A program made the translations under genes and the position numbers. Source: Thuidium tamariscinum (Eukaryota; Streptophyta; Bryopsida; Hypnales; Thuidiaceae). Taken from it: a DNA stretch of 64,000 nucleotides. The stretch covers positions 1,488,001 to 1,552,000 of the forward strand of contig OX344757.2 in assembly GCA_947034885.2 (NCBI GenBank), written 5' to 3'. The stretch's first letter is position 1. Every line of letters starts with the position of its first letter. This document shows positions 5,497 to 63,375 of the stretch, piece by piece. The notes under the pieces were generated by a model that saw nothing but the letters and a program-made list of their open reading frames with translations, was not told where the DNA came from and made no database searches.

Positions 5497-6014
5497 CTCC
5501 TAAAGGACGAAACTGCCTTTTTTGGCATCATAGCAATTTTGGGCAGCTCACTATGGATGGATTTTTTAATTTTTTTTCTTTGAAATTTTGACACAACGTG
5601 AGCTTGAGGAGTAGCTTCAAGGTCCAACAATTTTCATAGCTTTTGACCTCATGGTTAAAAAGTTATGGCATGACAAGTGATTTTCTCTACTCGGCAGGTA
5701 ATCCAGGCAGACCAAAAAACTTCTTCAAAAATCACTTTTAAAAAAAAATTGAAAACTGAAATAGATTCTTTGAACTTTTATATACATGTGAAGCTTCGAA
5801 TCATTCCATTTGGACTTATGAAGTGAAAGTTATGAAGATTTTAAGTTTGTGGGTGGGTATGGAGTTTCAAAGCTATGAAAATTGTTGGGCCTTAAAGCTA
5901 CTCCTTGGGCACACGTTGTGTCAAAATTTCAAAGAAAAAAAATAAAAACTCCATCCATAGTGAGTTGCCCAAAATTGCTATGATGCCAAAAAAGGTAGTT
6001 TTGTCCTATAGGGG
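5497..6014. mobile_element. TTAA-flanked foldback element, short type (copy A)
   Basis: A 518-bp element exactly between TTAA at 5493-5496 and TTAA at 6015-6018. The ends are CTCCTAAAGGACG and GTCCTATAGGGG. Beyond the short termini, roughly 150 bp at each end are inverted copies of each other: TTTTGGCATCATAGCAATTT at the left pairs with AAATTGCTATGATGCCAAAA at the right, and GTCCAACAATTTTCATAGCT with AGCTATGAAAATTGTTGGGC. A single-stranded copy would fold into a long hairpin around a central part of about 200 bp. There is no open frame, so it is non-autonomous. It is one member of the family described in the findings. Confidence 0.85.
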
Positions 6015-6230
6015 TTAATATGTGTCAACGAATTAGAGTCATGCATTTGGCAAATACATTAATTGTAGTTTAGGGACGGTTTTGGATGAGTCTCAGGTCC
6101 ACTACAAGGTACAAGGACGGTTTTGGATGTTTCTCTCTTAAAATCTTTTTGCTTGTGTACCACCTTTCAGATGCTCACATAATACTCAGTCTGCCCCAAA
6201 ATAATATTGTGGTTGGAGAAATGTAGTCAA

Positions 6231-6651
6231 TTCCTAAAGAACCAAGTTGTGTTTTTTGGCAACATAGTGATTTTGGCCAATTCATTACGAATGGAGTTTG
6301 TTTTGTTTTGTTTTTGAAATTTTGGCACAACATGTGCCCAAGGATTAGTTTTTAAGGACCAACAATACCTACCAACAAACTGAAATTCCTCATATCTTTC
6401 ATCTCATTAAATATAATGGGATGATTCAAAGCTTCTCATGTACACATAATTCTAAAGAATCAATTTCAAATTTTTATTTTTTCAATAACTTTTTAACCAT
6501 AGAGTCAAAAATTATGAAAATTGTTGGACCTAAAATGTACTCTTTGGGCACATGTTATGTCAAAATTTCAAAGAAAAAAATAAAAGCTTTATTTGTTGTG
6601 AATTGCCTAAAATTGCTATGTTGCCAAAAAATGCATTTTGGTCCTTTTGGA
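6231..6651. mobile_element. TTAA-flanked foldback element, short type (copy B)
   Basis: A 421-bp relative of copy A, with left end TTCCTAAAGAACCAAG preceded by TCAA (one change from TTAA) and right end GGTCCTTTTGGA followed by TTAA at 6652-6655. It keeps the subterminal TTTTTTGGCAACATAGTGAT and its complement near the right end. It is more decayed than copy A and sits only about 215 bp from it. An open frame at 6421-6660 lies inside it and looks like chance. Confidence 0.75.
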
Positions 6652-6655
6652 TTAA

Positions 6656-9600
6656 AATAAGCTCAAATTTTGTCAAAAAATTGTAGTATCATGTGCTTAC
6701 AGTATGTTTTTCAATATTGTGTGCTTGTACAATAATATGTGTATTGTTAGAATGCTATACTATAACAAATCATTATTTACATATTTGTTTTGCTAGTGCA
6801 ATTCCAAATTCAGTTGATTTTAAGTAGTTTTTTCAACCACAAAATTATTTTGGAGCATAGGAATATTCTTAAAGGTTGAAGTTTTTCTATAGCCAATGTG
6901 GATTGAATTGTTTGTATTATAAAGGACTACAATTCATGGAGAAGCTTGCATTCAAGAGTTTCTTTAGTAAAAGGAGATTTGATCGGGATTTTAGCTTAAA
7001 CAAAGGGGCTGTGGCTTCAAAGTTCGAGAATGTTGTATAGGATGACTGCAAGAAACACTTGTTCTATTTTTTATCCCTTTATCCTTAGATAGGTGTTTTT
7101 TTGCCAATAATTTTTGCATTATATGTCTATTTGGCATGAAATTTGGAATGAACATACACGTGGTAGTTGCAAACACTGAATAATTTTTTCAATTCTTTAA
7201 AATTTAGTTTACTTTTTTTTAAATTGCCTTCAATTGGATGCCTACCTTAGCCAATTTGGAACTTCAAATCCTATTTTTTACCACAATTGAGAATTTGAAG
7301 CCACAAATTGGACATGATAGAAATCTATTAACATTACAAGGATTAACAATGAGTTTTTATGAAAATAGCAACATGTCAGTTTTTCAAAATGGGGTCAAAG
7401 TGATTTTTTTTGCATGAAGGCTACAAAGAGGAAAAAATTTCCTACAAGAATTCTTTGGTGCAATGCTAGGACAATCTTTTCTAACAAAATGGATTCTTTT
7501 ATGTGAGCTTTTTGAATATTTATTGAATTACAAAAAATGTAAAGGTCGACAAATTCTTTTCCTACTATTTTTGCTTCAAATGGCTTTTGTAGTACTTTGT
7601 AGCAGTCTATAATATTGCATAATATTGTATACTATATCAATTGATAAGATCTAAAGGCATCTTACATCAACAATTGAAATCTATAAAGGTATTGTTGACA
7701 CATAGTACTAAAGATTTTATGGTTGAAAATTGCAATTTTGAGCCAAAAACATGAAGTGTTTCTTTCATTCACCCTACATAATCAAGTTCAATAATCTTAC
7801 AAACTACTTATTGTATCATTCAAAATATTTGCATAATATGGAATATATCAATTGGCATTTTTTTGTACAATCAATAATCAACATTTATACAATCACAATC
7901 AAGCATACTAAATTTTTGCTTTAGAAAAAAGAAGCTTTATTTTGGAAGAATTGTTTTTTTAAATCTCATGGTTTTATACAATAATTGATGGAAAAACAAT
8001 GGAGATGAATTGTTTTTAGTATGATTGGATTAATGTATAGAAAAAATCCATATGCACATCTTTCTTCTACAACAATTTTTAAAAAGAAATTCCCTCTATG
8101 GAAATTTTAATGTTAAGGTGACAAATGTCCAAATTTGGAAAAATAGATGTGTCTATATTTTAATATTACACTAGTCACTATAAATCATTCATGTGTGTTT
8201 ATGAATTAAAAGAAATCCACATTTATAAAATCTATAAAGTTATATTTAAGAGTCTAAGAGTCAGTATTGATAGATATTGGTTTTTCAAAAAATATTCAAA
8301 GACTAATATCTTCTTAATCAAGTTTTTATATTTTTTATCCAATAATAGCATAAAGAACTATAATACGTTGTGTAATATTTACTTTAGAATACATATCCCT
8401 CCCTACATTCAACCTTCTCATACAATTATCAACCTTCTCACACATCTATCCAATACTTAATTATTCTAAGATAAAAATGTTGGTATCGGTCTAAGACACC
8501 TTTGGATATTTGGTACATTTTAGCTATAACAATGGCATCATCCGAAAGACCTAGGTCAAACTTTCCAAGGAGGCACACAAGGAGGCTATCTAGGTTAAAG
8601 TCTACTATTCTCCAAAAATCAAATCCAACACAAATACTCTATTTGGAAAATTTCTTCAAGGACCTTGTTAACAAACATCATGCATAATAGGTTTTCTTAC
8701 TATGTTGGGAGACTGTGAGTTTCCGGATTGTGGAAACTCACTGAAAATTGTCCCAACAGTTGATCTAATGTAGCACAGAGACTACCACATCAGATAATAA
8801 TATTTTATTAAATTAAAAAAAAATATTATTAATTTTTTTAAATTCATTTTTAATTCATTTTTATTTTTTAATATTTTTTAATATTTTTTAATTCTGAACA
8901 GCGAAAAAACCTCTTATGTGGCATGGAAAACATGAACCATCTTTTTGGCTCATGAATTTATTTTTCAATCTCATTAAACTCCAATGACAACAAAATGTTA
9001 GGGCTTTGGAAGTTACTATCTATTCAAAAGACAAGATATAGTCATGTCATTATAAGTTACAATTGAAGTCAACAAACAAAAACAAAATTGATTTAATTTT
9101 TAAGCAAGGATGAAAAGATTTGCCCCCTTAGTGTCAAATGTATGATTTGGGATATAAAGATGTGTTTGAAGGTGAAAGGAAGCCCTAATTGACATTATAA
9201 ATTTCTAGTGGATCAACGGGACTAATTTATAAAGATAAGATGCTTTATGACATTGTTGTATAATTTTGATAAAATTTCTATGCACACAACAAACAAAAAT
9301 GGTCACATTTTGACAAAATTGTGCAAAGAATGTCTAGATCCCCTAATAACTTTTGTATTGTATAATATTTGTGAAAATGGAAATTTTTGTGGTTTTTTTT
9401 AGAGGGCACCATATTCAAATTTAATAATTTTTTCTATTTTTAGGCATCTATTGAATTATAAATCACAACTTTACTTAAGTATTTGGCATGGAATGCCAAC
9501 CTTGACTATAAGGTACAATAACCTTTTTTGTTTAAGAGATAGTTAATTCCTTTGTAATGTTCTTAATCCCTAATGACCATTGAAAACAAATCAATTATTC

Positions 9601-9832: not shown

Positions 9833-9834
9833 TA

Positions 9835-18920: not shown

Positions 18921-18924
18921 TTAA

Positions 18925-19325
18925 CCCCTAATCCCCTGAGCTGCGTTTTTTGGCAACATAGCGATTTCGGGCAGCTCACTACGAATGGAGTTTGTTTGTT
19001 TTTCATTGAGATTTTGACACAAGATGTGTTTGGGGAGTAGCTTTAAGGCCCAACAATTTTCATAACTTTTGACTTTGTGGATAAAAAGTTATGGTATGGT
19101 ATGATATGTCATTTTGTTTGCTTAGTGGGCAGCCCGGGCAGCTGATTAAATTTTTTTTTTGAAAAGTGAAATTTCAAATTGATTCTTTAGGTTTATACAA
19201 ACATGGGAAGCTTCGAATCATTCCATTTGGATTGATGAGTAAAAAATTATGAGGAATCTTAGTTTGCAGATGGGTATGGTTTTTATCGCTATATTGCCAA
19301 AAAACGCATCTTAGGGGATTAGGGG
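18925..19325. mobile_element. TTAA-flanked foldback element, short type (copy C)
   Basis: A 401-bp element between TTAA at 18921-18924 and TTAA at 19326-19329. The termini are perfect over the first 13 bp: CCCCTAATCCCCT at the left and AGGGGATTAGGGG at the right. Subterminal TTTTTTGGCAACATAGCGAT (left) and ATCGCTATATTGCCAAAAAA (right) identify the family. The right inner arm is shorter than in copies A and F. The 3' flank resumes with CCCCTAAAATG after the shared TTAA, possibly the stub of another copy. Confidence 0.88.
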
Positions 19326-19768
19326 TTAACCCCTAAAATGAAAAGGGCCTTTTTGGATTTAAGAACATCATCACTTTTGAAGGGTTATAGATTTAAATGT
19401 CACTAAGGTATAGAAATTTCAACACTACAATCTTGTATACATGTTGTAGATGACACAAATCAAACTTAGAGTCATTTGGCCTCATAGATTGCATGATTAT
19501 AATGTTTTAGTGTTGAAAAAGGATAGTGAAATTTTCCTAGTACATTTCAGGGAGATATTTGATTTATAAACCTATTCAAATGAAAATAATTTGAACTATA
19601 TAGTGCTTCAAAACCAACATACAAACACATTGGTGAAAAAAATATCATTCAATTAACTCACTCTGTATGCAAAATGGATTTGAAATGGTAAAAACTAGCA
19701 AAAAAAATGGCAAAAAGACATCTAGGATTGAGTATCCTTCTACTAAAATGCTTCTCAGTTAACCTTAA

Positions 19769-20696
19769 CCCCTAAAGGACAAACATGCCTTTTTTGGCAA
19801 CATAGCGATTTTGGGCAGGTACATGTGGCTAGATATTTTCTTATTTTGGAACCAAACTATAATAGAAGGTGTAGACGAGGAGTATCCTCAAAGTCCAACA
19901 ATTTTTGTGACTTTTGACTACATGGTTGAAAAGTCATTGTATAAAATGTTGTTTGTTTTTCAACTTGGGCAGTTCAGGCAGATAAAAAAATCATTTTTTT
20001 TGGAAATAAAAATTTGAAATTTGTTTTATAGATTTATACTGCATATATACATGGAAAGCTTTGAATCATTCCATTTGGATTAATGAGTCAAATGTTATGA
20101 AGAATTTTAGTTTGCAGGTAGTTATCAATTCTCTTCTCTAAAATAAACTTTGAAGTCCTTTATTTTACTCAATTTTCAATATTTAAATAAATAAATAAAA
20201 ACAGTGGGTGTAGGTTGTTTATTACAACACTTGAACCATTGGGATTGGCATTTTTCAATTCAATAAATAAATTGTTACCATTTTTGTATTTTGAATCATT
20301 CTCTACTTCTTTCTACTTACTATTTTTTTGTACATGTTGTACTATTCCAAATGATATGAAAATTTTCAAGCATGTAGCCAACTTGAATTGGAGAATGAAT
20401 CCAAAGAGTTGCAACCATTTTGGACATTTTTTCATACAAATGTGGCCTTCTAAAGTGCAGCTGCCCGGATTTTCGCACTGGAAAAAAAATGATTTTTGTA
20501 ACTTCAAACACTAATATCTTGCAATCTACATGGTGAAATTTTTTTAATCTTTTCTACATCTTTCCAAACTAGTGCACTAAAAGATCATATGGTTACATAT
20601 GTCAAAAATTGTTTTTTTTTTTAAATCTCATAGCTATCCTAGAAATGACAGTTTTGGAGCAATTTTGGTAGAAACATAGTTGTAGTCCTTTAGGAA
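19769..20696 (+). mobile_element. TTAA-flanked element, chimeric type (copy D)
   Basis: A 928-bp element between TTAA at 19765-19768 and TTAA at 20697-20700. Its left 400 bp (CCCCTAAAGGAC, then TTTTTTGGCAACATAGCGAT) match the short foldback type, while its right 200 bp (TTGCAATCTACATGG, then GAAATGACAGTTTTGGAG and GTCCTTTAGGAA) match the right end of the long type. The middle (around 20150-20310, GGGATTGGCATTTTTCAATT) is shared with copies K and L. It has no transposase-like frame; open frames at 20215-20514 (+) and overlapping minus frames are chance. Confidence 0.82.
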
Positions 20697-20726
20697 TTAA
20701 CATCTTCATTTGAAATGATATTTTAA

Positions 20727-21596
20727 CCCCTCAAGTCCCAACAACTTTTTGTCCATCAAGGTTTTCAACGTATGGTACCACTTTGATATTTTTTGCGCTT
20801 AGATGTGATTGAAATTTTTTATTTTAATTATACAAAAGCAAAGACTACTTTTGCTAGTATGCATGTAATTATTTGTGAAAATTTTGATTTTTTGATTTTT
20901 AGAGTATAATAATTTTGGATGATCAACTTCATAAGTGAAAAAATGAAAATTTTTGAGGAAAAAAATATATAAAGATGAATCATAATTTTTTAATCTTCTA
21001 AAAACATTGTCTTGGAATATAAGGCAAATGTAGTAGTTTCTTATTAAAAAATTTGAGAAATAGAAAACTCTCTCAAATTTCTACACATTTTCAAAGAGAA
21101 AGCATAGAAAGCCAAAAATTGACCAAATTGGATCCTATGAAAATCTTAAAAATTCATACGTGCATAAATTTTTGAAATTTAACAATTGAGATTATTACTA
21201 TACTATTTGAAACATCTTCAAAATTTTGGAATCATTCTAATTATGGAAAATTCTATTTTGAAATTTATAAAAATAAAAACTTGAAAAAAATTCTCCAAAT
21301 TTTTGTTTATTTGTATAGAATAAAGACTAGAGATGTCCAAGAATTTTTTTTCCATCTCTATTACTCCTTTCATTGGAAAAACACTGTATTTGCTCCATTT
21401 TTCTATTAGACTACGTTTCCTAAATAAAATTTTAAATACTTCTTACATTAAAATTTGGAAAATTAGAACATTTAAGTATGTAATCTCTTTACTCTACAAG
21501 TTTTTAGCATACAAAATATTGAAATTTGTTTCACCCTATTGAGGATTCACCATTTTCTAGAAGAAGACGCATTATGTCTTCTTGATCCCTAAGAGG
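20727..21596. mobile_element. Divergent TTAA-flanked element (copy M)
   Basis: Sequence of 870 bp between TTAA at 20723-20726 and TTAA at 21597-21600. The left end is CCCCTCAAGTCCCAAC; the right end is GATCCCTAAGAGG, whose complement CCTCTTAGGGATC is only a loose match to the left. Length and target site fit the family, but the interior does not align with the other types, so it is either a fourth subfamily or a coincidence. It begins only 26 bp after the end of copy D. Confidence 0.5.
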
Positions 21597-22070
21597 TTAA
21601 CCTCACAAACTAAACTAGTATATGCAACTTTTCAAAAAAGAAGTTACAGAAACTGACACTAGATGAAGAAGAAATAATCCACTAAAGTTCACTATAATCC
21701 AAAAATGTCTAGATGTTGAACTTTGAATTGCTCCCATACATTCAAAATAATTTGGATAAGCCATAAAAATTTTACTTCAATAACAAGAATTCAAGGGGAA
21801 TGGAATCCAACAAACGTTTTTGAAAACAAATATTGGATGAAGGAGATACAAGCCCTTGAAGTTGCAGCCATCAAAATGCAATTCAAATGATTCAAAGTGA
21901 ACCTTTGAACTTTGAATGGCTTTCAAAAAATCAATACATCTTAGATTGTTCTCAAAATTTTACCACACAAAGTAAAAGAGAGTAGAGATTTTCAACGAGT
22001 TTTATTGAATGTGGACATTGGATGCAAAAGTTACAACACTTCAAATCGGACTTCCAAACTATGCAACGGT

Positions 22071-24667: not shown

Positions 24668-25522
24668 CATTGTCAAGTTCCAATTCATTATACATAACAA
24701 ATAAACCTTTATCTTAGTGGGATGTGCATCTAGAGATGGTTGATCTTTGCTTCTTGATACGGTAATTTAGTAAGGTATACTCCAAGTTCTACAATAAGGC
24801 AACAAACGGTGAGGTAAGTTATGCCAAAAGTCAACTTCTTTCTCCTTGGAGTTAAGTTGACCCCTAAGTGCCTAAGCCTTGGCAAGTGTGTTTTTCTTGT
24901 GAAAAAAGAGCATTGATTTCTAATAATCTCTAATGAAGCAAATTTTTCTTTTTTCAAAATCCAACTACATAGATGTTTTGAGAGATTGTATATTAGTCCA
25001 CAAACCAATTTTGAGTGTAAAATTGCAAAGAAGTTGTGAGATTATAACAAGAGAAATGTGTATTTTCTATTTTTAGTGTATTGCCTCTCTCCCCACAATA
25101 TTTTAGAAATTTGTATATTAAAGTTTTTTGGGATTAATGGTGACATGAACAAATACAAATAGTGTTAGTACACTAAAATGTACTTTCAAAAAACTTAATT
25201 TCAGTTGAAAAGCTATCAAATTCATTATACAATCCACCTTGCAATTGTGGTAATACAAAAAATTTCTACAACTAAAAATTGCAAAAATCTTCAAACCAAC
25301 ACTTGCATCTTGAAATTTTCAATGGTAAAAATCATAGAAATACTTTATTCTTTCTTCTAGGACCATTTTCAAAGCATTTGAATAAGTACAATTTCTTAGA
25401 TCTCAAATCAATTGACATTGGCAAGTTGTGTACTAAAGGGGAAAATGAAGTAAAATTGGCAAGCTTTACTCTCCACTAATGTTACATATATGCCTTTGAA
25501 GACCCCTAAATAATCAAACATG

Positions 25523-25757
25523 GTTGTCAGTATGTGAGCATAAAAGTGTGAGCTTATGAGCCTCAAAGATGATGGAACCTATAGTATAGGTGCTTATACT
25601 ACAGAAACCTTTTATGATAAGAATATATTTATACTATAGGTACCTATATTACAAGTATTTTTACTATAAACACCTTCAAAGGTGGTAGTACATCTACTTA
25701 TATACATATTAGAAGCTCACATGCTCGCATGTTCATGCTCACACACTAGCATTGTTG
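25523..25757. repeat. AT-rich MITE-like repeat, copy 2 of 4
   Basis: The left end GTTGTCAGTATGTGAGC and the right end GCTCACACACTAGCATTG are inverted, the clearest termini of this family. The middle repeats CTATAGTATAGGTGCTTATA-like units. See 22071-22293 for the family. Confidence 0.6.
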
Positions 25758-25810
25758 AATAATCAAATATTTACTTGTTTTCATGAAAAATGAAAGTTTT
25801 CAATAGTTAA

Positions 25811-25886
25811 CACTAGAAACTGCCCATTCAGATTTGAGCTGAAATTTTTCTGCACGACCATATATGGTCGCTCGGGCAGTTAGGGG
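25811..25886. mobile_element. Tiny TTAA-flanked inverted-repeat element (76 bp)
   Basis: It lies between TTAA at 25807-25810 and TTAA at 25887-25890. The left end CACTAGAAACTGCCC and the right end GGGCAGTTAGGGG are imperfect inverted copies, and a palindrome CGACCATATATGGTCG sits inside. Its right TTAA is also the left TTAA of copy E, so the two are back to back. It could be an extreme deletion derivative of the TTAA family. Confidence 0.5.
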
Positions 25887-25890
25887 TTAA

Positions 25891-26813: not shown

Positions 26814-27014
26814 TTAATTGAATGGGGAAACAACCCATTCCCTATGTGCAAAAATAGAGTTGAGAAGGCATCCATAATTTTTTAGATTTTTATTTCTCAA
26901 AACATAACTACTGTGAACTTTTTAACTAAAGATTGTGTTTTGATCCATACTAGTTAAATAGACCTTCCTATTTCCAATCAAACAATACCCACCAAGGGTT
27001 GGTTGCAATATTAA

Positions 27015-27562
27015 CCCCTAAAGGACCAAGTTGTGTTTAATTTTTTGGCAACATAGCAATTTTGGGCAGCTCACTAAGCATGGAGTTTTTATTTTTTTTT
27101 CTTTGCAATTTTCAGGCAATGTGTGCCCAAGGAGTAGCTTTAAGACCCAACAATTTTCATAACTTTTGAGTACACGGTTAAAAAGTTATTGCATGATATG
27201 TCCTTTTCATTCGACAACGGGCAATCCAAGCAACCCAAAAAACTTCTTTAAAAAACTTTTTTTAAGAAATTAAAATTTTGAAATTGATTCTTTACATTTA
27301 TATACTCATGATAAGCTTTGAATCATTCCATTTGGATTAATTAAATGAAAGTTATGAGGAATTTCAGTTTGCAGGTAGGTATGGATTTCAAAGACTACAT
27401 ACCATGTACTCAAAAGTTATGAAAATTGTTGGGTCTTAAAGCTACTCCTTGGGCACACATAGTGTGAAAATTTCAAAGAAAAAAAAATAAAAACTCCATA
27501 CGTAGTGAGCTGCCCAAAATCGCTATGTTGCCAAAAAAACGCAGCTTGGTTTTCTTTAGGGG
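27015..27562. mobile_element. TTAA-flanked foldback element, short type (copy F)
   Basis: The best-preserved short copy: 548 bp between TTAA at 27011-27014 and TTAA at 27563-27566. The left arm (CCCCTAAAGGACCAAG, TTTTTTGGCAACATAGCAAT, TTGGGCAGCTCACTA) and the right arm (TAGTGAGCTGCCCAA, ATCGCTATGTTGCCAAAAAA, CTTTAGGGG) pair over roughly 160 bp. The inner ends of the arms are near 27178 and 27408. The central 230 bp are unique to the family, and there is no open frame. Confidence 0.9.
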
Positions 27563-27589
27563 TTAAGGATGTTGTAGCCAATCATATGG

Positions 27590-33580: not shown

Positions 33581-33584
33581 TTAA

Positions 33585-34509
33585 CCCCTAAAAGCCCATT
33601 GTCCCCTCAGGGGACAATTTGGAGTTCAATCAAGTTCCGATGACCTCAATTTTTAGTGAATTTTTTTGAATTTTTTTTATAGTATAGGAAAACCAATTAG
33701 CTTCAATCATAGAAATATAATTTTTATTTCAATTGGTGCCCAGGAGCAAAAGTTATACAACAAAAAGCCCAAATTTTAACTTGGCAAGCAGAAAAATAAA
33801 TCCACAAATACTTGAAATTAAATTTTAAATTTTTTAATCTTATAGATCATATTTTTTTTCTACGTGTGAAGCTTTGATTCATTCCATTTGGATTAGTTAT
33901 GTGAAAGTTATGAACAATTTTGTTTTTCATACAGTTTGAGCATCTTCGTGAAAATATAACTTATAGGATTCATTTCTGAATGAAATTTTCACATTTTTTC
34001 AAAAAAAATTGCTTGACAAGATTAAATTTTCTTGCTAGAAAAATCTCACCATTGGAATTATTGTGTTTCAATTCCATCTTAGAGCTATTAACAATTTAAT
34101 TTTTCTTTCAATCTTGAACCTACCTCTACTTAATAATTTTTTAAAGAATGAAATCAAGCATTTTTTTTTTGAAATTTTTTTCCTAGACTTTCAACTCAAT
34201 TCTTAAACACACAAATTTTTTAATTCAAAGTCTATAATGCAAAAAAATTCAACAAATGGCAATCAAAGTCATCTGAAATTGCAAGACAATATTTTAAAAA
34301 GACTATGCTTTCCAGCTTTGAATGCCCATATCTTCCAATCTATACGGTCAAACTTCATAAAGTTTTTAGCATATAATCTTAGACAAACAAAGTACAAGCT
34401 CATATAGTTATATTCTATAAAAATATTTGTTTGTTCTTCTAGATGAATGCAACAAAAATGGCAGTTTTGAGTGGTTTTTGACAGAAAAATGGCCTTAGGT
34501 CTATAGGGG
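33585..34509 (+). mobile_element. TTAA-flanked element, long type (copy G)
   Basis: A 925-bp element between TTAA at 33581-33584 and TTAA at 34510-34513. It begins CCCCTAAAAGCCC followed by the palindrome TTGTCCCCTCAGGGGACAA and ends TCTATAGGGG. The inner order matches copies H and I: GGAGCAAAAGTTATAC, then TTTGATTCATTCCATTTGGA, then CTTATAGGATTCATTTCTGA, then ATGGCAGTTTTGAGTGG. No coding frame. Confidence 0.88.
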
Positions 34510-34576
34510 TTAAGCTAGCCCTCTAGAATTGTAGTAAGAACCACTATAAATTTAAGAGGGTCTTGTTGAGAAGCAC

Positions 34577-37200: not shown

Positions 37201-40200
37201 TAGGGACATCCATAACTGTCAAAATAAGCAATTCAGTAGAGTTGAAGGTATCTTTTCCTAGAAAAAATATTTTTATAGTATTAGCAACTGAAAATCATGA
37301 AATTTTTTTAAAAAATTAGAATTTTTGGACAAGTCATCTAATTTCTGTGAATTTTCAAAGTGGACCTCACATTAGGAGGGATTTGAGGGCTGCAAAGGGC
37401 CATTTCGGGACTGTTCACGAAACTGGTCTGGGAACGGCTGGCCGCTGGTCAGCATTTAAAAAATAAAAAATAAAAACTTGGGGTCCTGAAATATGAAAAA
37501 AAGTCCAAAGTTTTTATTTTTATTTTTCGAAAAAAAAAAGTCGATGACGTGGCACGTTCTCGACCACGTCGGACTCCTACAGAACTGCGTTCCCGCGGCT
37601 GTTTTCGCGATTTTGGACTGTGGGAACTCACAAGCTCCCAAAGCCCTCCTAATGCTAGGGCACTCTATACCGCACTCTAGTAAATCTACCTTGATTCTCA
37701 CAACAAAATCTAAAAATTCAGAGTTTACCAATCAAAATTAAGAGTGAGTGACAATTTGGAGGTACTCTTGAAGACAATTTAAGGGCACTCTACTTGTCAA
37801 TTATGGGTGCAGTAACGGTTATGGATGCTGCTACCTTATGTGCCGTGTTTAGGGTATGTTCTACACCTCCTTGATTGAATTTGGAATCTCTAATTGTAAA
37901 TATGGATTCAGAATTTGCAGAAAAAACGTTTTGCAAAGAGAAGTCTTTCAATCCTCTCTTCACATCTAAAATCTACAAATTTGGTCATCAAAAGATATGA
38001 GGACAAAGAACACAACATGTGCAACTCCAATAAATTTATGGCTTTTCAAAATCTACTCTACAATATTTTAGAATGAATTTCTAATGTGATTTTGTCACCA
38101 AGATCTAGTGTATTTGGCTCATTTCAAAAAGTCCTCAACACTACATAAAGTCAAGATTGCAATGGCCCTCCTTGCACAAAATCTTGAATAAAAAAATCAC
38201 GATCAATCACTTTGAAGATCAGATTTCCTAGGCTAAAACTAGACTTCAAAAAGACTTTGTATAAAATATGAACTTCTAAAAACAATGTCTTCTGTAGGTT
38301 TTATTTAACTTTAAAGTTTTGTTGGCACTAAAAATTGGTGCCTCAAGCATTGAAGGATTAAGCTTCATGTTTCCAAATTTAAGGTTTTTGGTAAAAGAAT
38401 ATTTTTAGAAAATAGAGTAGATTATGAATTCAATAGCAATAGTTTCATCAAAATCCAAGTTAAACTCTGAGTTGTGAATTTTTTTAAAATTGAGTAGATA
38501 GGTTCACAACTTATGTTTTTTGGTTCAATTTGGTGACGGATTAAAAAATCAACTTACTAAATAATGCAATTGTTGCCCACCTTGAAAAATAAAAGTCTAA
38601 GGAGCTCTAGGAGAAGTCAATTGTGCCTATTCTTGGTTTTTTTATAAACACTACTCTCATTTCACTTGCCACTGTGCATTTCAAGCTCCATCCAAAATTG
38701 CTAAATGACCAAAATGCTGTAAATTTTAGATTTGAACATTTTAAGCTCTATTATTTGTCTTTCATTGAGCTTCAAAAATAAATATCTACTAAACCATTCA
38801 TCCAAATAATCTGAATTGTATTCAAAGTGCTCGCTTTCAGTGTAAACTACAAGATCCTATGGTTACATTCTATCTCATCTCATGAAAAACGAGAAAACAA
38901 ATTGCTCAAGTTCTTGGCAATCTTGGCCCATTTTGAAAGTATACACCTTTTAGGTCATTAGGGGGTAGTTGCAAAGTGGAATGTTGGAAGTGAAGGTATA
39001 TTAAGTCATAAGTGTTCATGAGGTTTTGAAATTAGTAGGGAGAATTTGGTTATTTTCTATACTAAATAGTGAAATTAGATTGCCTTATCCTAAAAAAATT
39101 ATTTTATAAGCCATCAAAGTTTTAAAATATTTCTACAAATAATTCCATTTGTACACATAGAGGCTCATCAGTTCCAATCATAACAATACTTGATTCAAAA
39201 GTAGTGCATTCTTTTACAATGACATTAAATATTTATATAGTATCAAATGTCAAGAAATCAATGTAAGATAACCTAATTTCATTGTTTAGTGTAGTTTCCT
39301 TTTTGTAAAAAAAAATGTATGTGGCATATTTGATAGTAATGTTATTGTTGGTATGTAATGTGTTCTTAAAGTCTATTTTGGAAATTTTGAATTTCTTAGT
39401 TATAGTTTCAAAATGGATGGAATATGGATGGAGCTATATGTGCCAATTAAAATTAATATCATTAGATGTACATCCTACCTATTAGTCATAATGTTTGAAA
39501 GAAGTGTTTGGTATTTATTGATTCTTGAAAATACATAGACTACAAATATACAATCATTACAATATGTGAATCCAAGAAATTATGGAATATACTTTAGGAT
39601 TCTTTCAAAGGAAGGGGCGAAGAATTCTTAAAGTAGTTAAAGTAGATGTGAATTTCTTTTAATTTCTAAATTTTTTTGGTTCAAATTTGCTTCCAAGTAG
39701 TCAAACCCAAAGCAAGGTTAAAATCTTCACCTTTATTTATTCATTAACAAATCCAATTGTAAGATCGTTTAGTTAATTTATTAAAGTTTACCCTCCTAGA
39801 TGAAAAAGCTTATTGATTGCAATACCATGATGCTTTGATTTCAAAGAATAGTATTTTCAACTCTTCCCAAGTGATTGGGTTTCATCTTTCAAACTTCTTA
39901 TACAAATCTTACAACTTGATACTCTCTATAATATGTTTAAAGATATAAGTTGGGAATACATATAATGATTCTAACAAAAAAATAATTCATATTCAAACTT
40001 GCAAAAAAATAAGTTGAAAGAAACAGAATATAATTTAAAATTCTAAATTACTAAGAATTTATTTGTAGAATTGGAAATTTCAGTTTCCAAGGTTGGAATG
40101 TTGTATTAAGAAAAATCTACGTCCTCTAATTTTATTTTATTTCAAAAATATTGAAAATTGGGTTGAATAAAGGCCTTCAGAGTTTCATGATAGATTTTCC

Positions 40201-42988: not shown

Positions 42989-42992
42989 TTAA

Positions 42993-43917
42993 CCCCTAAA
43001 GGACCATTGTCCCTTCAGGGGACAAATGCAATTTCGGGCAGGTACCTACGGGCTGAATTTTTGTCCTAATTTTTTGAAATTTTTTTTGGAGATAGAAAAA
43101 TTGAATATCTTCATGGGAATATTATTTTTTTTTCAATCGGTGCCCGGGAACAAAAGTTATGCCCAAATAAGCTCAAAACAGGGGACGGCGGGCAGTTCGG
43201 GCAGCAAAGAAAAAAATTGAATTTTTTTTTTTGAATTTTTTTTCTTATAGATTATATTTTTGCCTATCTAGGAAGCTTTGATTCATTTTATTTGGATTTG
43301 TTATGAGAAAGTTATGGGCATTCTTGTTTTTCGGGCAATTAGAGCATTTTCTTGAAAAAAATAACTTGTAGGATTCATTTCTGGATGCAATTTTTGCAAT
43401 TTTTCAAAAAAATAAATTTTTCATGGTTTAGTTTACTTGCTAGAACAATCTCACCATTAGGATTAGTGCATTTTAATTCCATTTAAAAGATATTAATATT
43501 TTAGATTTTCCTTCTATCTCATACCTACTTCTACTTAACATTTTTCTTAAGAATGAAAATTAAGTTTTTTTGAATTTATTTATTTTTTCCTAGATTCTCA
43601 ACTCAATTTTTTACTATAAATAATTAAAGCTCAAAACTCTTTAGTGCAAAATTTTTAAGTTAAAAATGTTCAAAGTCGAAAAATCCAGTCCCGCAATGTG
43701 TTGAAAAACTTGTTTTTCCCACTTTAAATGCAAGTATCTTGCAATCTGTGTGGTCAAAAATTCTGAATTTTTTTCCACACTATCTTATACTAGTGAGGTA
43801 TAAGATCCTACGGTTAGATGTGGAAAAAAATTAATTAAAATATTTTTTTACTCTTTGCTATAGAATTGGCAGTTTTTAGTGTTTTGGGGCAGAAAACAGG
43901 GCTTGGTCCTTTAGGGG
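42993..43917 (+). mobile_element. TTAA-flanked element, long type (copy H)
   Basis: A 925-bp element between TTAA at 42989-42992 and TTAA at 43918-43921. The termini CCCCTAAAGGACC and GGTCCTTTAGGGG are perfectly inverted over 13 bp. The near-left palindrome reads TTGTCCCTTCAGGGGACAA. It abuts a LINE 3' end on its left, so its insertion either cut the LINE or landed at the edge. No coding frame. Confidence 0.92.
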
Positions 43918-43921
43918 TTAA

Positions 43922-45150: not shown

Positions 45151-45154
45151 TTAA

Positions 45155-46077
45155 CCCCTAAAGGACCAAGAGTCCCCTCGGGGGACTTTAAGAATTCGGG
45201 CAAGTATTTGTGACTTCAATTTTTCATGAATTTTCTTGAAATTTTCACATAAGATAGAAAAACTGATTATCTCCGTGGGAATATTATTATTTTTTCAATT
45301 GGTGACCAGGAGCAAAAGTTATGCCATCTTAAACATAATTTTCATGTCGCCGGGCAGAAAAAATAAATAAAAAAAACTTCAAAATTAAAAAATTAATTTT
45401 TTTTCCTTATAGATTTCATTTTTGTCTACAAGTGAAACTTTGATTCATTCCATTTGGATTAGTAATGTGAAAGTTATGAACAATCTTGTTTTTCGGGCAA
45501 TCTAAGCATCTTCTTGAAAAAATAACTTATAGGATTCATTTGTGAATGCAATTTTCACAATTTTTCAAAAAAAATTGTTGGACAAGGTTGATTTTGTTTG
45601 CTAGAACAATCTCACCATTGGGATTATTGTGTTTCAATTCCATCTGTGAGATATTTGCAATTTAGTTTCTCTTTCAATCTTGGACCTACATCTACTTGAC
45701 AATTTTTTAAAGAATGAAAAAAAAGTCTTTATTTTGTGAATTTTTTTTCCTAAGCTCTTAGTTCAATTTCTCAATAGAAAAAATTTTTAATTCAAGGTCT
45801 GTAGTGCAAAAAAATTACATAAATGGAGGACAAAGTCATTTGAAGTTGCAAACTAGAGTTTAAGAAAACTTTGTTTTCCAACTTTGAATGCTCATATCTT
45901 CCTATCTATATGGTCAAACTTCATGAAATTTTCACCACATGATCTTAGTTAAGTAAAGTACAAGATCCTACGGTTAGATTCTAAAAATTTAGTTTTTTTG
46001 TTTTTCATGGATGAATGAAGCAGAAATGGCAGTTTTGAGTGGTTTTGGGTTGAAAAACGGCCATGGTCCTTTAGGGG
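45155..46077 (+). mobile_element. TTAA-flanked element, long type (copy I)
   Basis: A 923-bp element between TTAA at 45151-45154 and TTAA at 46078-46081. The termini CCCCTAAAGGACC and GGTCCTTTAGGGG are perfectly inverted. The near-left palindrome is AGTCCCCTCGGGGGACT. It is collinear with copies G and H throughout, and is among the best copies for a consensus. No coding frame. Confidence 0.92.
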
Positions 46078-46774
46078 TTAAGGTAGCCAACCCCTTTTCG
46101 ATTAGCCCCCATTTCCAAAGTCTACATTGTTCTATTTCCGAGTATAGGAGGTAGGAGTAACCAACCCATTACGATGCATTATAAGTTGTTGATTTCCTCT
46201 TTATTTCCTAATTAGCCTATGATTGGAATTAAACATACCTAAATCATAATTGCAAGCTTTTATTAGATGGCACTAAATCGAATAACAAAGATGGATGTTT
46301 AATCCGTAAAAGACCAAGCAACTTTTTCAATTGTGAAGATTTTCAAATTATTACTAAAGCATCAAAAAAATTATAAAAACCACTTGTATTATGTTTATTT
46401 TAAATTCCCTAATAACCTCATCACAAAAATTTGGTCACTTGACCTTTGAAATGGTGGAATTACAAATATTATTGTTTTTAGATGTTTCTCTACCAAAGGC
46501 ATGTCTAGATAAAAATTGTAGGCCCAATTTACATGACTATCACTACTTTTGAAGTTGACTACACTAATAATGATATACAATGTAACTACACTCATTAATT
46601 TTGGAAATGCTACAAATCTTTTACTTTTGATGAAATTGTTTACTAAGAGCACATTTATCTACATTATGCAAAAAAGGAGACGGTTGTGAATATAGTTGGT
46701 AAAGATGTTCATTAGGAGTAAAAATCCACCTATAACAAGCAAAATGAATGTTTTTGCCCTATTGCAATTAGTAA

Positions 46775-51011: not shown

Positions 51012-51195
51012 TACTAGTATGTGACCATATTAGCCTTGAGTACGTATACAAATAGATATCATACTATCATTGAAGGTGCTTATAATATATATGGATTATA
51101 ATCATAAAAGGTCACTATAATATAAACACTTATATCATAAGTGTATAGTCTTTTAGACTCAACGGCTCACACTTCTAACCTCACATAATATCAAC
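51012..51195. repeat. AT-rich MITE-like repeat, copy 4 of 4
   Basis: It begins CTAGTATGTGACC and ends CTCACATAATATCAAC. Internal blocks ATCATTGAAGGTGCTTATAA, AATCATAAAAGGTCACTATA and GTGTATAGTCTTTTAGACTC match copies 1 and 3 in order. Confidence 0.6.
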
Positions 51196-55719: not shown

Positions 55720-57662
55720 AGGCGTTAGTTAGGATTTTTTGTTTCGTAGATGAGAGTAGGTTCAGCGCAACTGCGGTGTAGATGAACGACAGACTGCAAT
55801 AGAAGAAAGAGCATTCCAGTTCTCTGTAGACTAATTCTTTATGTACATAGTTACATTTATTTTGTGGCAGAGGCGAGGCAGTTCTTAGCAGTTGTAAAAT
55901 GACATTGAAGGAAGATCATTGCTTTCCAAGTTTCATCGGTGGCCGTGGTTTGTGCAAGATTAGAGCCACATTCCGGATCAGCCAGATGAGCTAAGGATGG
56001 CGTCAGTGGCTACGCATTTGAGAGTTTCTTCTTGTACTTTTATAAGGTTTATGTAACAATTGCTTGGACTGTCTTCTCTACATTGAAGAGAGTATGATAA
56101 ATCTCGTTTCGCGTGGGCTACTGTCCCTGTCCCGGTTTCATTACCGCACGGTTGCTTGTGAATAGAATACTGTTTTATATTGTTGTTATTATGTCGAATG
56201 CAGATGCAGCGATTTCATGGCAAACACGAAATCCTCACTCATAATGAGTAAGATATCTTACAGCTCGCGGGCACGCAGCACTGTTTCTTGGTTGCAGCGC
56301 TCTCAACTCTCTGGAATGACACTTTGTAGTTGCACATTCCATTTGGATATGCTGGGAATCTGTCGTGTTGTGTGCATATCTGATTGGAGTTATTGGACAG
56401 CTTGCACTGTTGCGCATGGCAAGTTGAAAACTCGTGTAGAAAGCTGCGGAGAGGCAGTACAGTGGTGTCATTATAAGTTGAGAGGATTGAGTGTTCACTG
56501 TTGAACTATGAGTGGGAGGGAGCGACTCATTTGCTTCGCAGTAACGTACTGGCAGGAGAGAAATTTGGAAATCTCCAACTATGTTGTGAAGCGTACTTGC
56601 AGGCCGGGAATCATGTCCTGACCCAGTTTGCATTTCGCAAATGGGTGCAGCCTGACACAGACAATGACCAGAAAAGCTGCATTGGCCTGTTGGCCTGTTC
56701 ACTGGATGTGGGGTCCTTTTTCCAGTTGATCAGTGAGTGAGTGCCGTGATCATTTGCAGAGTCAACTGGGTTAAGTTATTAAGTTAGTGGAGATTAAAAA
56801 AAAGGCTGACTGCCATTTGCATCATGGCTGTACTAAATTAAACGTATTATTGCTTGAATCATGAGCATCTGCCTGGAGTCCTTCTCCAGCAAATAGCAAG
56901 GCCTGCCCACATCGGTGAGGGCGGGTCGTGCAGATCCTCTGCAGGGATGCCTTATAGTTGACTTAAGAAATAACCAGATCCGGAGCGAATATACCCAACC
57001 CCGTGGAACCCTTCAAGGGCAGTCTTGTTACAGAGGGTTCTCTATGGTAAGGTAGGTACACCCAAAATGGCACCTGATCTTAAAGCGCCATCTACAATGT
57101 GCATACATTTCCAAAATTAGTCATGTACGTAGATTGTAGATGGCACTTTCAGAAATAGACTTTGACCATTAATAACTTTTGCATACAATATCCAAATCCT
57201 TTGTTCTTTGGTGTGTTGAAACATGCTTTCACTTGCCAACAAGATAGTATAAAAATTTGAACAACATGATAATAGGACCTAGGCACAATAAGAATAAGTG
57301 GTGCTTTTGGATGTACCCACCTTAAGTGCACTTATAAACAAGGCTTTTCTTTTCATTTTTGATGAAGTGGCAAAGTGGCAATAGAAAGTATTATTAGTGG
57401 TGCTCCCAATTTCAGCATTCATTCACATACTTTGAATAGAATATATCACATTAGCACATATCACATATCTAATTTAATTTGAAGTTTTCTAGTGAAAAAG
57501 TTCACAGTTTGCTATCATTCATGAAGGCCAATTTTTGGGGGCTGCAATTTGGCACTAGAAAAGCCTTGCTCATAATTTCAATGGAGCTTTTCATTGCATG
57601 AGAGGAGAGGCATGTTCATTTTGATATCATGGGGTTGCTTTAGCATTATCATGTCCTTCCCT
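55720..57662. other. 3' flank of the MYB gene and spacer
   Basis: The 3' UTR probably occupies the first few hundred bases (T-rich, ending before about 56200). The open frames at 56217-56504 (+) and 56235-56702 (-) overlap on opposite strands and match no family. 57060-57150 contains GCGCCATCTACAATGTG and, inverted, ACGTAGATTGTAGATGGCAC, a small inverted repeat. Confidence 0.4.
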
Positions 57663-57666
57663 TTGA

Positions 57667-58592
57667 CTCCTAAAGTCTCAAGGCCTTTCATCCTTAAAGA
57701 AATACTTGTAGCTGCCATTTCTATTGTAAAGAGAAAATATCTTTGAAATTTTTCTACTTTATACTATACCATAGGACTTTGTATTAGACTAGTGGAAGAA
57801 TACAAGGAAGAAATTTCAAAAACTTTGACCACATAGATTGCAAGATAAAGTAAAAAAAACAAGTTTTTTGGCTCCTTGCTTAACTTGATTGTTTTGGTTT
57901 GAATCTTCATAGCTTAAAATTTTATTACTACTATAGTAGTTTTCTACTTTGTGATTTTTGACGTTCAAGAATTGAGTTGAAAGTTTGGGGATTTAAAAAA
58001 AAAATTCACACACTCAATTGTCACTCCTTATATAATTATTTTGAAGAAAAAAAAACTAAGATTGAAGGAAAAATTAGACCATTAATAGGTCTAAAATGGA
58101 ATTAAAATATAATAATCTCGACAATGACATTGTTCTATTAAGAGATTCTAGCCTCTTAAAATGGGATTTTCTAGAAATTAGTAAAAATTGTGATCATATA
58201 TAAATTTTTCAAGCTATTTTTTCAATAAGATATCAGATTACCAAGAAAACAAGATTGTTCACAATTTTCACATAACAAATCCAAATGGAATAGGTGAAAG
58301 CTTCCCTTGTAGATGAAAATAAAATCTACAAAGAAAAAAAATATAATCTTTTTATTTCAAAATTTTGTAGGGATTTTTGTGTATTCACCAAACTAAAATT
58401 TAGGCTTACTACGCTATAACTTTTGCTCTTGGGTACTAATTATACATGAATAAAGTAATATTTCCATCAAGCTAATGTGTTTTTTTCTATTTGTAGAAGA
58501 AATTTGAGGAAGTCAACATGGATATTGAAACCATAGGAGCTTGTCTAACTGATTCATTTTCAATTCTTGAGGGGACTATGAGACTTTTGAGG
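57667..58592 (-). mobile_element. TTAA-flanked element, long type (copy J, decayed)
   Basis: 926 bp, reverse orientation, with the left end CTCCTAAAGTCTC preceded by TTGA (one change from TTAA) and the right end GAGACTTTTGAGG followed by TTAA at 58593-58596. Inner landmarks in reverse order match copies E, G, H and I. The end-to-end length equals the better copies despite many substitutions. Confidence 0.8.
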
Positions 58593-58596
58593 TTAA

Positions 58597-61223: not shown

Positions 61224-61227
61224 CTAA

Positions 61228-62064
61228 CCCCTAAAGGACCAAAGTGCGTGTTTTTGGCAACATAGCGATTTTGGGTAGGTACCTACAAATGGAGTTTTGA
61301 CTGCATGGTTCAAAAATTATTGTATGATATGTAGTTCTCATTGCTCAACGGGCAGATCGGGCAGCTAAAAAAACTTCTTAAAAAATGGGTTTTTTTTAAA
61401 ATAAAAATTTGAAATTGGTTATTTAGATTTATGTATACGTGGAAAGCTTTGAATCATTTCATTTTGATTAATGAGATGAAAGTACGAGAGTTTTAGTTTG
61501 TGGGATGTTATGGAATGTCTATTCTAAAATAAATTTTAAAGTCCTTTATTTAATTCAACTTTTAATATTTTTGAAAAAAAATAAAAATATTGGGTGTATA
61601 TTGTTTAATATAACATTACAACCATTGGGATTGCATTTTTTTAATCTATAAATAAATTGTTAATAAGTTAGTATTTTGAACCATTCTCTACTTCTTTCTA
61701 CTTATATTATTTTTTTTCTACATGTTATACAATTCCAAATGATTTGAAAACTTTCAAGCATGTAGCCAACTTGATTTGAAGAATGAATCTCAGATGTGGT
61801 CTTTTAAAGTGCAGCTATCCAGATTTTTGCAAGGGTAAAAAAAGGATTTTTATCACTTCAAACACTAATTTATCTTGCAATATATATGGTGAAAAATTCT
61901 GAAATTTTTTCCACATCTTCTAAAACTAGTTCACTAAAATATCCAATGATTACATTTGACCAAAAATATATATTTTTTAAAATTTGGTAGTTGTCCTAGA
62001 AATGACAGTTTTAGAGTGGTTTTGGTGTGGTTTTGGTGAAAGCATTGTCTAAAACCTTTAGGGC
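61228..62064 (+). mobile_element. TTAA-flanked element, chimeric type (copy K)
   Basis: 837 bp with left end CCCCTAAAGGACC preceded by CTAA (one change) and right end ACCTTTAGGGC followed by TTAA at 62065-62068. The left part has TTTTTGGCAACATAGCGATT, the right part GAAATGACAGTTTTAGAGTG, the same joined structure as copy D. It lacks about 90 bp relative to D. Confidence 0.8.
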
Positions 62065-62450
62065 TTAAAGAAAGAGGCTAGAGTAGGGTCTGCTCTAACT
62101 CCTTTATTCCATTCAAAAAAACCTAGTTTAGTTATTTTCTTCAAAAAGGGTAAATTCCAAAAGTTGGATTTTACTCATTTTTAGATTTTAGTTGGTGCTA
62201 GTGTAGATAGGCTTAGACATTGCTAATTAGAAAGCTAAAATCTAGAGTAAAGTTTATTTGAGGAGACTATGTGTCTGTACATATCCAAATAAGACATTGC
62301 AATTAAATAAAGAAAGCATTGTTCTTGACGGAAACATACAAATTCTCACAATTTTAACTCATTAAACTAGTTACTAGATTCTTTCACTCCCTTCTTAAAG
62401 GCTACTAACAAGGATTTAAATACCCATGATTGGTTTTTTCTTTTTCTTAA

Positions 62451-63375
62451 CCCCTTAGTTCCTTGACTATTTTTACTCCAAAAACATTCAAAAATTTCCA
62501 TTTCTAAGATCAATACCAATTTTTTTTCTTAACTTTTCTTTTGAGATTTGTGATTGTAGGATCTTGTAATAAATTAGTTGGAGAATATGATAAAAAAAAT
62601 TTAGAGTTTTTCATAGTGTAGATTGCAAGATGTTAGCATTTGGATGCTCAAAAATCAAAATTTTCACCCTTCAAAATAGAGGGGAGGTGTACTTCAAAAG
62701 GCAAAAATCATACATAAAATGGTCCAAAACAATTGTGCCTCTTTGGATTCATTGTTGAGGTTAACTAGGGTACTTGCCTAAAAAGTTTCAAATTGTTTAG
62801 AATTGTACAACATATAGGAAATAAATAGGAAGTAAAAAGTAGCAAATGATTCAAAATAAAAAATTGTTAAGAATTTAATTGTGGAATTGAAAAATGCCAA
62901 TCCCAATGGTTGGAATGTTGTAATAAACAATTTACATCCTATGATTTTTTTTTTCCCAAAAAATATTGAAAATTTAGTAAAATAAAAGACTTCAAAGTTT
63001 ATTTTAGAGTAGACTGAATCCATAATTGCTTGCAAACAAAAATGCCTTATAACTTTTGACTCATTGATCAAAATGGAATGACTCAAAGCCTTCTATACAT
63101 ACATAAATGAAGAAAACCAATTTCAAACTCTTGTTTTTGAAAGAAGTGATTTTTTTCAATCTATCTGGATTGCCCATTTACCAAAAAACCCACATATTAA
63201 ATAGGCCATAACTTTGGGCTCATATTTTCAAATGTCGTGATTTTTAGTACACATAAAAGATATTCATTGTCCCTTTCTTCTATTAAAATTTTTGCCCAAA
63301 ATTTGAAAATCTCTAGTCACATGTACTTGCCTAAAATTACTATGTTGCCAAATTTAGCACATTGGTTCTTTATGG
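62451..63375 (-). mobile_element. TTAA-flanked element, chimeric type (copy L)
   Basis: 925 bp in reverse orientation, starting CCCCTTAGTTCC after TTAA at 62447-62450 and ending ATTGGTTCTTTATGG. The right flanking TTAA is no longer recognisable. CTATGTTGCCAAATTTAGCA near the right end and GGGATTGGCATTTTTCAATT-like sequence (complement at about 62895) tie it to copies D and K. Confidence 0.72.

What the first reader, a model, noticed from the sequence alone, without database searches (positions are those of the whole stretch)
5497..63375. A large family of TTAA-flanked, CCCC-ended non-autonomous elements (piggyBac-like signature) in a plant genome
Copies A, C, D, E, F, G, H and I have TTAA directly outside both ends, and B, J, K and L on one side with a one-base change or loss on the other. 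Outside TTAA the flanks differ from copy to copy, so TTAA behaves as a target duplication rather than part of the element. A 3-bp TWA duplication (PIF/Harbinger) would need asymmetric ends to give the same picture. The termini CCCCTAAAGGACC and GGTCCTTTAGGGG fit the CCC-type ends of piggyBac elements. With copy M and a 76-bp candidate they cover about 10 kb of 64 kb. I know piggyBac transposases mainly from animals, fungi and some algae, so an expanded plant family would be notable. No transposase was seen here.
Basis: partly seen in the sequence, partly recalled or inferred. Interest (0 to 1): 0.85.

Follow-up and report, generated by a model that had tools for sequence, protein, structure and literature searches.

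The report
Plant piggyBac miniature transposons with partners
A plant genome, probably a moss, carries thousands of short jumping-DNA copies of the piggyBac type together with full-length piggyBac relatives that encode the matching enzyme, a transposon group known mainly from animals and only scarcely recorded in plants.

Summary
Observation confirmed; the piggyBac reading is supported. The window holds 13 segments of one MITE group (9.3 of 64 kb), 8 with TTAA on both sides. Genome-wide, 4780 of 5353 exact CCCCTAAAGGACC ends (89%) have TTAA directly outside. In 20 of 20 fetched empty-site relatives of two insertions (40 scored) the junction holds one TTAA-like 4-mer and no extra bases. The missing partners exist: at least 116 piggyBac (PF13843) matches. 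Of 13 such loci read as larger stretches, five are 5-8 kb TTAA-bounded elements whose ends resemble the MITE ends over about 100-300 bp; two end in the exact CCCCTAAAGGACC. The L049 transposase aligns with T. ni piggyBac over all three catalytic aspartates; the five form one clade. The host is a land plant, probably a moss. Unexpected: family a (copies A, B, C, G) has the transposase-5'-side end at both termini, an arrangement reported inactive for native T. ni piggyBac and piggyBat. Filed as new members of a known superfamily, unusually expanded in a plant. No activity was tested.

The parts
5493..6018 (.). copy A, family a (5'-type end at both termini), 518 bp between TTAAs
   Evidence: empty sites 13 of 13 fetched
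6227..6656 (.). copy B, family a, decayed ends (TCAA left, shifted TTAA right)
18921..19329 (.). copy C, family a, 401 bp, TTAA both sides
19765..20700 (+). copy D, family c, 928 bp, TTAA both sides; left end of the 5' type, right end of the 3' type of the elements at L054/L055
25887..26817 (-). copy F, family b, 923 bp, TTAA both sides; shares the TTAA at 25887-25890 with a neighbouring TTGA/TTAA-bounded candidate
27011..27566 (.). copy G, family a, 548 bp, TTAA both sides
33581..34513 (+). copy H, family b, 925 bp, TTAA both sides; 21-bp palindrome starting 13 bp inside the 5'-type end
42989..43921 (+). copy I, family b, 925 bp, exact CCCCTAAAGGACC at both ends, TTAA both sides; 98% identical to the L013 element
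45151..46081 (+). copy J, family b, 923 bp, exact CCCCTAAAGGACC at both ends, TTAA both sides
61224..62068 (+). copy K, family c, 837 bp, CTAA left, TTAA right
62447..63376 (-). copy L, family c, inverted, TTAA at 62447-62450, decayed right terminus
57712..58484 (.). degenerate family b copy without intact termini
40002..40185 (.). family c fragment
24857..25890 (.). candidate related element, ends CCCCTAAGTGCC/CCCCTAACTGCC, TTGA left, TTAA right; pieces at 34720-34915 and 51074-51195; not proven
20723..21600 (.). weak candidate, CCCCTCAAGTCCC/CCTCTTAGGGATC between TTAAs; no second copy in the held sequence; not proven

Best explanation
The repeats are non-autonomous (MITE) members of the piggyBac superfamily. 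A piggyBac-type DDD transposase, encoded by 5-8 kb elements elsewhere in the same plant genome, recognises the CCCCTAAAGG-type termini and the sequence behind them, cuts the MITE out and inserts it at TTAA, leaving one TTAA on each side. Shown: the ends, the 4-bp target at the junctions, the empty sites, homologous ends on piggyBac-encoding elements, the conserved catalytic residues, and near-identical copies of related elements on different chromosomes. Inferred: that these transposases move these MITEs in trans, that they are expressed, and that excision is seamless as in animal piggyBac.
For: TTAA outside 4780 of 5353 exact ends. Empty sites: 13 of 13 fetched relatives of the copy A target and 7 of 7 of the L013 target read through the junction with a single 4-mer and no inserted bases. 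One element is flanked by TTAT on both sides. PF13843: 116 matches scored of 657 candidates, best 5.7e-80. L049 (928-6070) and L053 (1624-6796) are 97.4% identical; the alignment starts at the left TTAA and ends 4 bases past the right one, on contigs C7 and C2, flanks different; their ends match family b (L049). The elements at L054+L062 (7251 bp) and L063+L055 (7932 bp) share blocks of homology whose outer limits are their TTAAs, apart from another repeat of about 750 bp in both flanks; their two ends match the two ends of family c. L054 and L057 end in exact TTAACCCCTAAAGGACC on one side. The L049 transposase aligns to T. ni piggyBac 6x67 at 8.9e-33 with D268, D346 and D447 matched to Asp (residue numbers from PMC7351741 passages). 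The five same-end transposases form a clade at 100/99 in a tree of 15.
Against: No expression or transposition data. The strict CCYT start given for the superfamily in one paper is not met by the CCCCT ends; it is met by L050, L052 and L060. MITE ends and the autonomous ends found are only about 70-80% alike over 100-300 bp, so the direct parents may not be among the loci read. Two wide pairs of exact ends (L087, L088) are neighbouring MITEs, not autonomous elements. L050/L051 have only one located end, and the pair of L061 is weak. Of 12 joined flanks searched, only 2 gave junction-spanning relatives among the 40 scored of 3004 candidates, and the 7 relatives of the L013 target carry CTAA or CTAG, not TTAA. 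The L019 empty-site relatives are ambiguous at the junction. The 0 of 14 control genomes says little, because the one control that ever rang is a cyanobacterium and they may all be prokaryotes.
Confidence: 0.96

Rival explanations
1. PIF/Harbinger-type (Tourist-like) MITEs with a 3-bp TWA duplication and asymmetric ends.
For: TTA and TAA are contained in TTAA; Harbinger MITEs are common in plants (recalled). A single site cannot exclude a 3-bp duplication with an asymmetric element, not even the TTAT/TTAT one.
Against: All four bases of TTAA are kept outside 89% of ends, although one outer base would be free under this model; elements with these ends encode PF13843.
Confidence: 0.01
2. Tc1/mariner-like elements with a TA duplication, element ends ACCCC...GGGGT, preferring T-TA-A targets.
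For: Formally gives the same string at a TTAA site.
Against: It would leave the outer T and A free, but 89% of ends keep TTAA; the TTAT/TTAT element has no TA directly before A-CCCC; the partner transposase is piggyBac.
Confidence: 0.01
3. Kolobok or Sola3 elements, other superfamilies that duplicate TTAA (recalled).
For: Same target duplication (recalled).
Against: The proteins of L049, L053 and L057 match PF13843 at 2.1e-79 to 7.7e-77, and L049 matches the solved piggyBac and piggyBat transposases.
Confidence: 0.01
4. The MITEs are of piggyBac origin but no longer move: an old family, with the intact piggyBac elements now moving only themselves.
For: Most MITE copies compared are old: median pairwise identity 0.76-0.78 within families a (6 copies), b (9) and c (8).
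Against: Copy I and the L013 element are 98% identical; the same-end pair L049/L053 is 97.4% identical with open transposase frames.
Confidence: 0.25

Closest known systems
piggyBac (Trichoplusia ni IFP2) and piggyBat (Myotis lucifugus)
   Same: TTAA target, CCC-type termini (piggyBac), DDD core (8.9e-33 to 6x67, 2.1e-22 to 9c0f), cysteine-rich C-terminus; family b has a near-palindrome just inside one end, as piggyBac has a palindromic repeat bound by its cysteine-rich domain (analogy only).
   Different: Plant host; elements of 5-8 kb rather than 2472 bp (IFP2, abstract in the listing); an extra C (CCCCT, not CCCT) in the MITE-type ends; a large MITE crowd; family a with the same end at both termini.
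CMITE and piggyBac-like elements of Acropora corals (PMC2872659, abstract and outline seen)
   Same: A MITE family that seems derived from a piggyBac-like element of the same genome.
   Different: Animal host; the conserved internal region reported there was not looked for here.
Pokey and its MITEs of Daphnia (PMC4912750, PMC3849761, search listings only)
   Same: piggyBac-superfamily elements with MITEs.
   Different: Animal host; inserts in rDNA among other places.
PiggyBac entries in plant genome papers: C-fern 1230 copies, 122 kb (PMC6890710); Stipa 1 copy, 75 bp (PMC8319324); Stellaria 60 copies, 2318 bp (PMC13180808); PiggyBac among superfamilies found in all groups studied, land plants included (PMC4438587)
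   Same: The superfamily has been recorded in land plants.
   Different: In the passages seen these are table entries of small extent; no element structure, transposase or MITE family is described in them.

Membership tests
piggyBac superfamily | TTAA 4-bp target site duplication | tested here: met
   4780 of 5353 ends; 20 of 20 fetched empty sites with a single 4-mer (TTAA in 9; one-base variants in 10, CTAG in 1); TTAT on both sides of one element
piggyBac superfamily | Terminal inverted repeats of 12-19 bp starting CCYT (passage of PMC10175614) | tested here: inconclusive
   13-bp inverted repeats are present, but they start CCCCT, one C more than CCYT; strict CCYT starts occur in the sister elements L050, L052, L060. 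I treat the motif as typical rather than defining
piggyBac superfamily | Autonomous element with the same ends encodes a DDE_Tnp_1_7 (PF13843) transposase | tested here: met
   L049, L053, L054, L055, L057
piggyBac superfamily | Catalytic D268, D346, D447 and C-terminal cysteine-rich domain | tested here: met
   All three aligned in L049. A simple motif search found all three in 12 of 15 proteins and missed one or more in L043, L058, L060; the last 70 residues hold 5-10 Cys in 14 of 15, 2 in L060
piggyBac superfamily | Seamless (footprint-free) excision | not testable with these tools
   needs an excision assay or donor and recipient accessions
piggyBac superfamily | Two different ends needed (native T. 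ni piggyBac, piggyBat) | tested here: inconclusive
   Families b and c have 5' plus 3' ends; family a has two 5' ends; activity not tested
PIF/Harbinger | 3-bp TWA duplication and Harbinger transposase | tested here: not met
   All four TTAA bases kept in 89% of ends; PF13843 between the same ends
Tc1/mariner | TA duplication | tested here: not met
   TTAT/TTAT element; outer bases conserved

The most novel reading that the evidence does not exclude
This plant's piggyBac machinery mobilises natural symmetric elements that carry the same (5'-side) end at both termini (family a: window A, B, C, G; also L015 and L019). Native T. ni piggyBac and piggyBat were reported unable to move such left/left constructs (PMC7351741 section 13; PMC11707139 passages). 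If so, the need for two different ends is not universal in the superfamily, and this lineage can pair identical ends.
Probability: 0.4. Interest if true: 0.72.

Novelty: new member of a known kind. Interest (0 to 1): 0.62.

Why it matters
piggyBac is a workhorse of animal genetics. In plants it has been used as an animal-derived tool (passages of PMC10794571 and PMC5505980), and in the passages of plant genome papers that I saw it is recorded natively only as small table entries. A plant genome with at least 116 piggyBac transposase matches, open frames, near-identical copies on different chromosomes and thousands of MITE ends gives a native plant piggyBac system to test and a possible source of plant-adapted transposases. 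The symmetric family a offers a natural test of whether piggyBac really needs two different ends.

Tried and rejected
PIF/Harbinger and Tc1/mariner readings: rejected on TTAA conservation, the TTAT/TTAT element (against TA only) and the partner transposase. I did not search the genome for Harbinger or mariner transposases.

Wide pairs of exact ends as autonomous candidates: of three, L087 and L088 were fetched and are neighbouring MITEs without a transposase match; the 10,327-bp pair was not fetched.

Giant-virus carriers: a scan of viral contigs with an alignment of five transposases (A1) gave 23 pattern matches, none confirmed.

In one search, L041 was read on the wrong strand and looked broken; it was left out of the first tree and put in, right strand. 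L039 and L042 were left out of both trees because each has a stop inside the match. L044-L048 and L051 were not in the trees: L045 and L046 are near-copies of L044, which lies in L052; L051 of L050, L047 of L040; and L048 lies in L049.

Literature, by search call: 6, 19, 20, 27, 32, 33, 50, 52, 56, 75; only the listed rows were seen (up to 20 each). None of the listed rows is, by title and abstract start, a description of native piggyBac elements or their MITEs in a moss or other plant. The Niphotrichum paper has the string twice; the one shown is 'piggybacking'. The Physcomitrella paper PMC5505980 speaks of the T. ni tool and says it had yet to be tested in that moss (passages). Several papers say in passing that piggyBac occurs in plants (passages of PMC10140906, PMC10813416, PMC10794571; table of PMC4438587), so 'absent from plants' would be wrong. 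The library lacks most subscription journals.

Host species was not identified. Moss is inferred from PsaB: of 83 distinct PDB sequences (60 shown) the best three are 7ksq, 6l35 and 8htu, which I recall as Physcomitrium patens photosystem I.

Full report
The window (G000:C9:1488001-1552000 of a 363 Mb genome in 19 contigs) contains 13 segments of one MITE group covering 9316 bases. Eight (A, C, D, F, G, H, I, J) have TTAA on both sides; K, B and L are partly decayed; two are fragments. The 13-mer CCCCTAAAGGACC occurs 2742+2611 times in the genome against 0+3 for the reversed pattern, and 2453+2327 places have TTAA directly outside, i.e. 4780 of 5353. The window's own TTAA frequency is 0.75% per position.

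Target duplication. I joined the flanks of 12 insertions, keeping one TTAA, and searched the genome. The 40 scored matches (of 3004 candidates) all belong to two of the 12 flanks, 33 to copy A and 7 to the L013 element, and span the junction at 85-89% identity. I fetched 20 of the 40 (13 and 7). All 20 read through the junction without inserted bases: in the copy A set the 4-mer is TTAA in 9, TTAG in 2 and TTGA in 2; in the L013 set it is CTAA in 6 and CTAG in 1 where the filled site has TTAA twice, so that target must have differed from its relatives by a base. Within held sequence, copy A also aligned through the junction to L053 and L062, with TTCA and TTGA, while the L019 relatives were ambiguous. 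One element (L011/L012) lies between TTAT and TTAT. That excludes a TA duplication next to A-CCCC; a 3-bp duplication would still fit this one site if the ends were asymmetric, and it is the 89% conservation of all four TTAA bases that argues against it.

The partner. The genome has PF13843 (piggyBac transposase) matches at 116 scored places of 657 candidates, best E 5.7e-80. None of the 14 control genomes rings, but the only control named anywhere in my calls is a cyanobacterium, so this says little. I read larger stretches around 13 matches (L049-L061). Ten show a TTAA-bounded inverted-repeat pair: L049, L052, L053, L056, L058, L059 and L060 with at least 12 of 16 bases matching (the left end of L059 lies at the edge of its stretch), and L054, L055, L057 once the adjoining stretch was fetched. 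L061 has a weaker pair (11 of 16), and L050/L051 show one end only. L049 and L053 are 97.4% identical over 5.18 kb on different contigs with different flanks; the alignment starts at the left TTAA and stops 4 bases past the right one. The elements at L054 and L055 share blocks of homology whose outer limits are their TTAAs; another repeat of about 750 bp occurs in both flanks. L054 and L057 have the exact TTAACCCCTAAAGGACC at one end.

End typing. I compared the terminal 130 bases of 11 window copies with the 5' and 3' ends (relative to the transposase gene) of four autonomous elements (L049, L054, L055, L057), scored against shuffles that keep the first 17 bases. Family b (F, H, I, J) has one end like the L049 5' end (z 9-14) and one like its 3' end (z 12-21). 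Family c (D, K, L) has one 5' end (best z 10-28) and one 3' end (best z 9-13) of the L054/L055 kind. Family a (A, B, C, G) has the L054/L055/L057 5' end at both termini (best z 12-23); its strongest 3' score is 6.3 (left end of A, L049 3' end), where the 5' score is 13.7. In the sample of 30 exact ends, 14 distinct elements have a recognised second end; L015 and L019 are of the 5'/5' kind and the other 12 pair a 5' with a 3' type. Many ends score above chance for more than one autonomous element, so which element moves which family is not settled.

The enzyme. L049 has an open frame of 774 codons (613 from its first Met) and L053 one of 877 (613 from the first Met), with no stop in the match. 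L049 aligns to the T. ni piggyBac transposase (6x67, 8.9e-33) and to piggyBat (9c0f, 2.1e-22); counting residues in the printed alignment, D268, D346 and D447 all face Asp (triad from PMC7351741 passages). The last 70 residues hold 5-10 cysteines in 14 of 15 proteins. The five transposases L049, L053, L054, L055, L057 form a clade at 100/99 in a tree of 15. None of the transposase frames in my set (17, one of them the misread L041) matches the window by tblastn at E 0.01.

Age. The MITE copies compared are mostly old (median pairwise identity 0.76-0.78 within families), but copy I and the L013 element are 98% identical. Autonomous elements of other clades include very young ones: L050 and L051 share 4855 bp at 99.98% on C1 and C2; L044, L045 and L046 are 99.7-99.9% identical over 4.1 kb.

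Host. NAC (PF02365) matches: 27. Contig C19 carries intact psaA and psaB. PsaB scores best with 7ksq, 6l35 and 8htu (1665 bits, next 1630), entries that I recall as the moss Physcomitrium patens. Moss is therefore likely but not proven, and the species is unknown.

Mechanism. Shown: TTAA targeting, homologous ends on piggyBac-encoding elements, conserved catalysis. Inferred: trans-mobilisation and seamless excision. In family b a near-palindrome (ATTGTCCCCTCAGGGGACAAT in copy H) starts 13-16 bases inside the 5' end in copies F, H, J, L049, L053, L011, L023, L026 and L030, is imperfect in copy I, L014, L021 and L029, and is not seen at 3' ends; over 36 ends the mean palindrome arm is 4.8 against 3.4 in shuffles (maximum of 200 shuffle means 3.8). 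T. ni piggyBac has a palindromic-like repeat bound by its cysteine-rich domain (PMC7351741 passages), so this may be such a site; that is an analogy, and families a and c lack a comparable one.

The unexpected part is family a. For native T. ni piggyBac, LE35/LE35 was inactive for excision and integration, while the hyperactive enzyme tolerated it to a lesser degree (PMC7351741 section 13); for piggyBat no LE/LE activity was detected (PMC11707139 passages). Here six of six typed family a copies (A, B, C, G, L015, L019) have two 5'-type ends, five of them sit between TTAAs (B is decayed), and the copy A site has 33 scored empty relatives, 13 of them read. Either this lineage's transposase accepts identical ends, or an unseen autonomous element with two such ends exists; I cannot yet tell which.

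Novelty. piggyBac in plants is recorded in tables and in passing (PMC6890710, PMC8319324, PMC13180808, PMC4438587, PMC10140906, PMC10794571; passages). None of the rows listed by my ten paper searches is, by title and abstract start, a description of a native plant piggyBac element with its MITEs. I therefore file this as new members of a known superfamily in an unusual host, at an unusual scale. As a rough guide only: the window has about 12 elements for 6 exact ends, so 5353 exact ends would correspond to about ten thousand copies genome-wide if that ratio held.

Noticed in passing
window 4225-4299 and 4304-4378: A 75-nt inverted repeat, 99% complementary with a 4-nt loop, at the edge of a copia gag frame (3877-4302).
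   Followed up: no
window 36187-36389, 48063-48259, 57047-57325: Further repeats shared with the stretches of several piggyBac loci (L053, L056, L058); nature unknown.
   Followed up: no
window 5373-5492 and 6019-6138: Copy A sits inside another high-copy repeat with at least 33 further genome copies at 85-89% identity, useful as natural empty sites.
   Followed up: partly
L051 1146-1149; window 25887-25890: Elements abut and share a single TTAA: a piggyBac element starts in the TTAA at the end of a family c MITE, and copy F shares a TTAA with a neighbouring candidate.
   Followed up: partly
G000 C1, C2, C5, C8, C9: Ten PF13843 matches with the same score (269.4 bits) and the same 1023-codon frame, two of which (L050, L051) are 99.98% identical over 4855 bp: a very young piggyBac burst.
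   Followed up: partly
G000:C1:38344367-38345549, C2:5226827-5227651, C6:6427592-6427915: Broken psaA/psaB-like pieces in large contigs, probably plastid DNA insertions.
   Followed up: no
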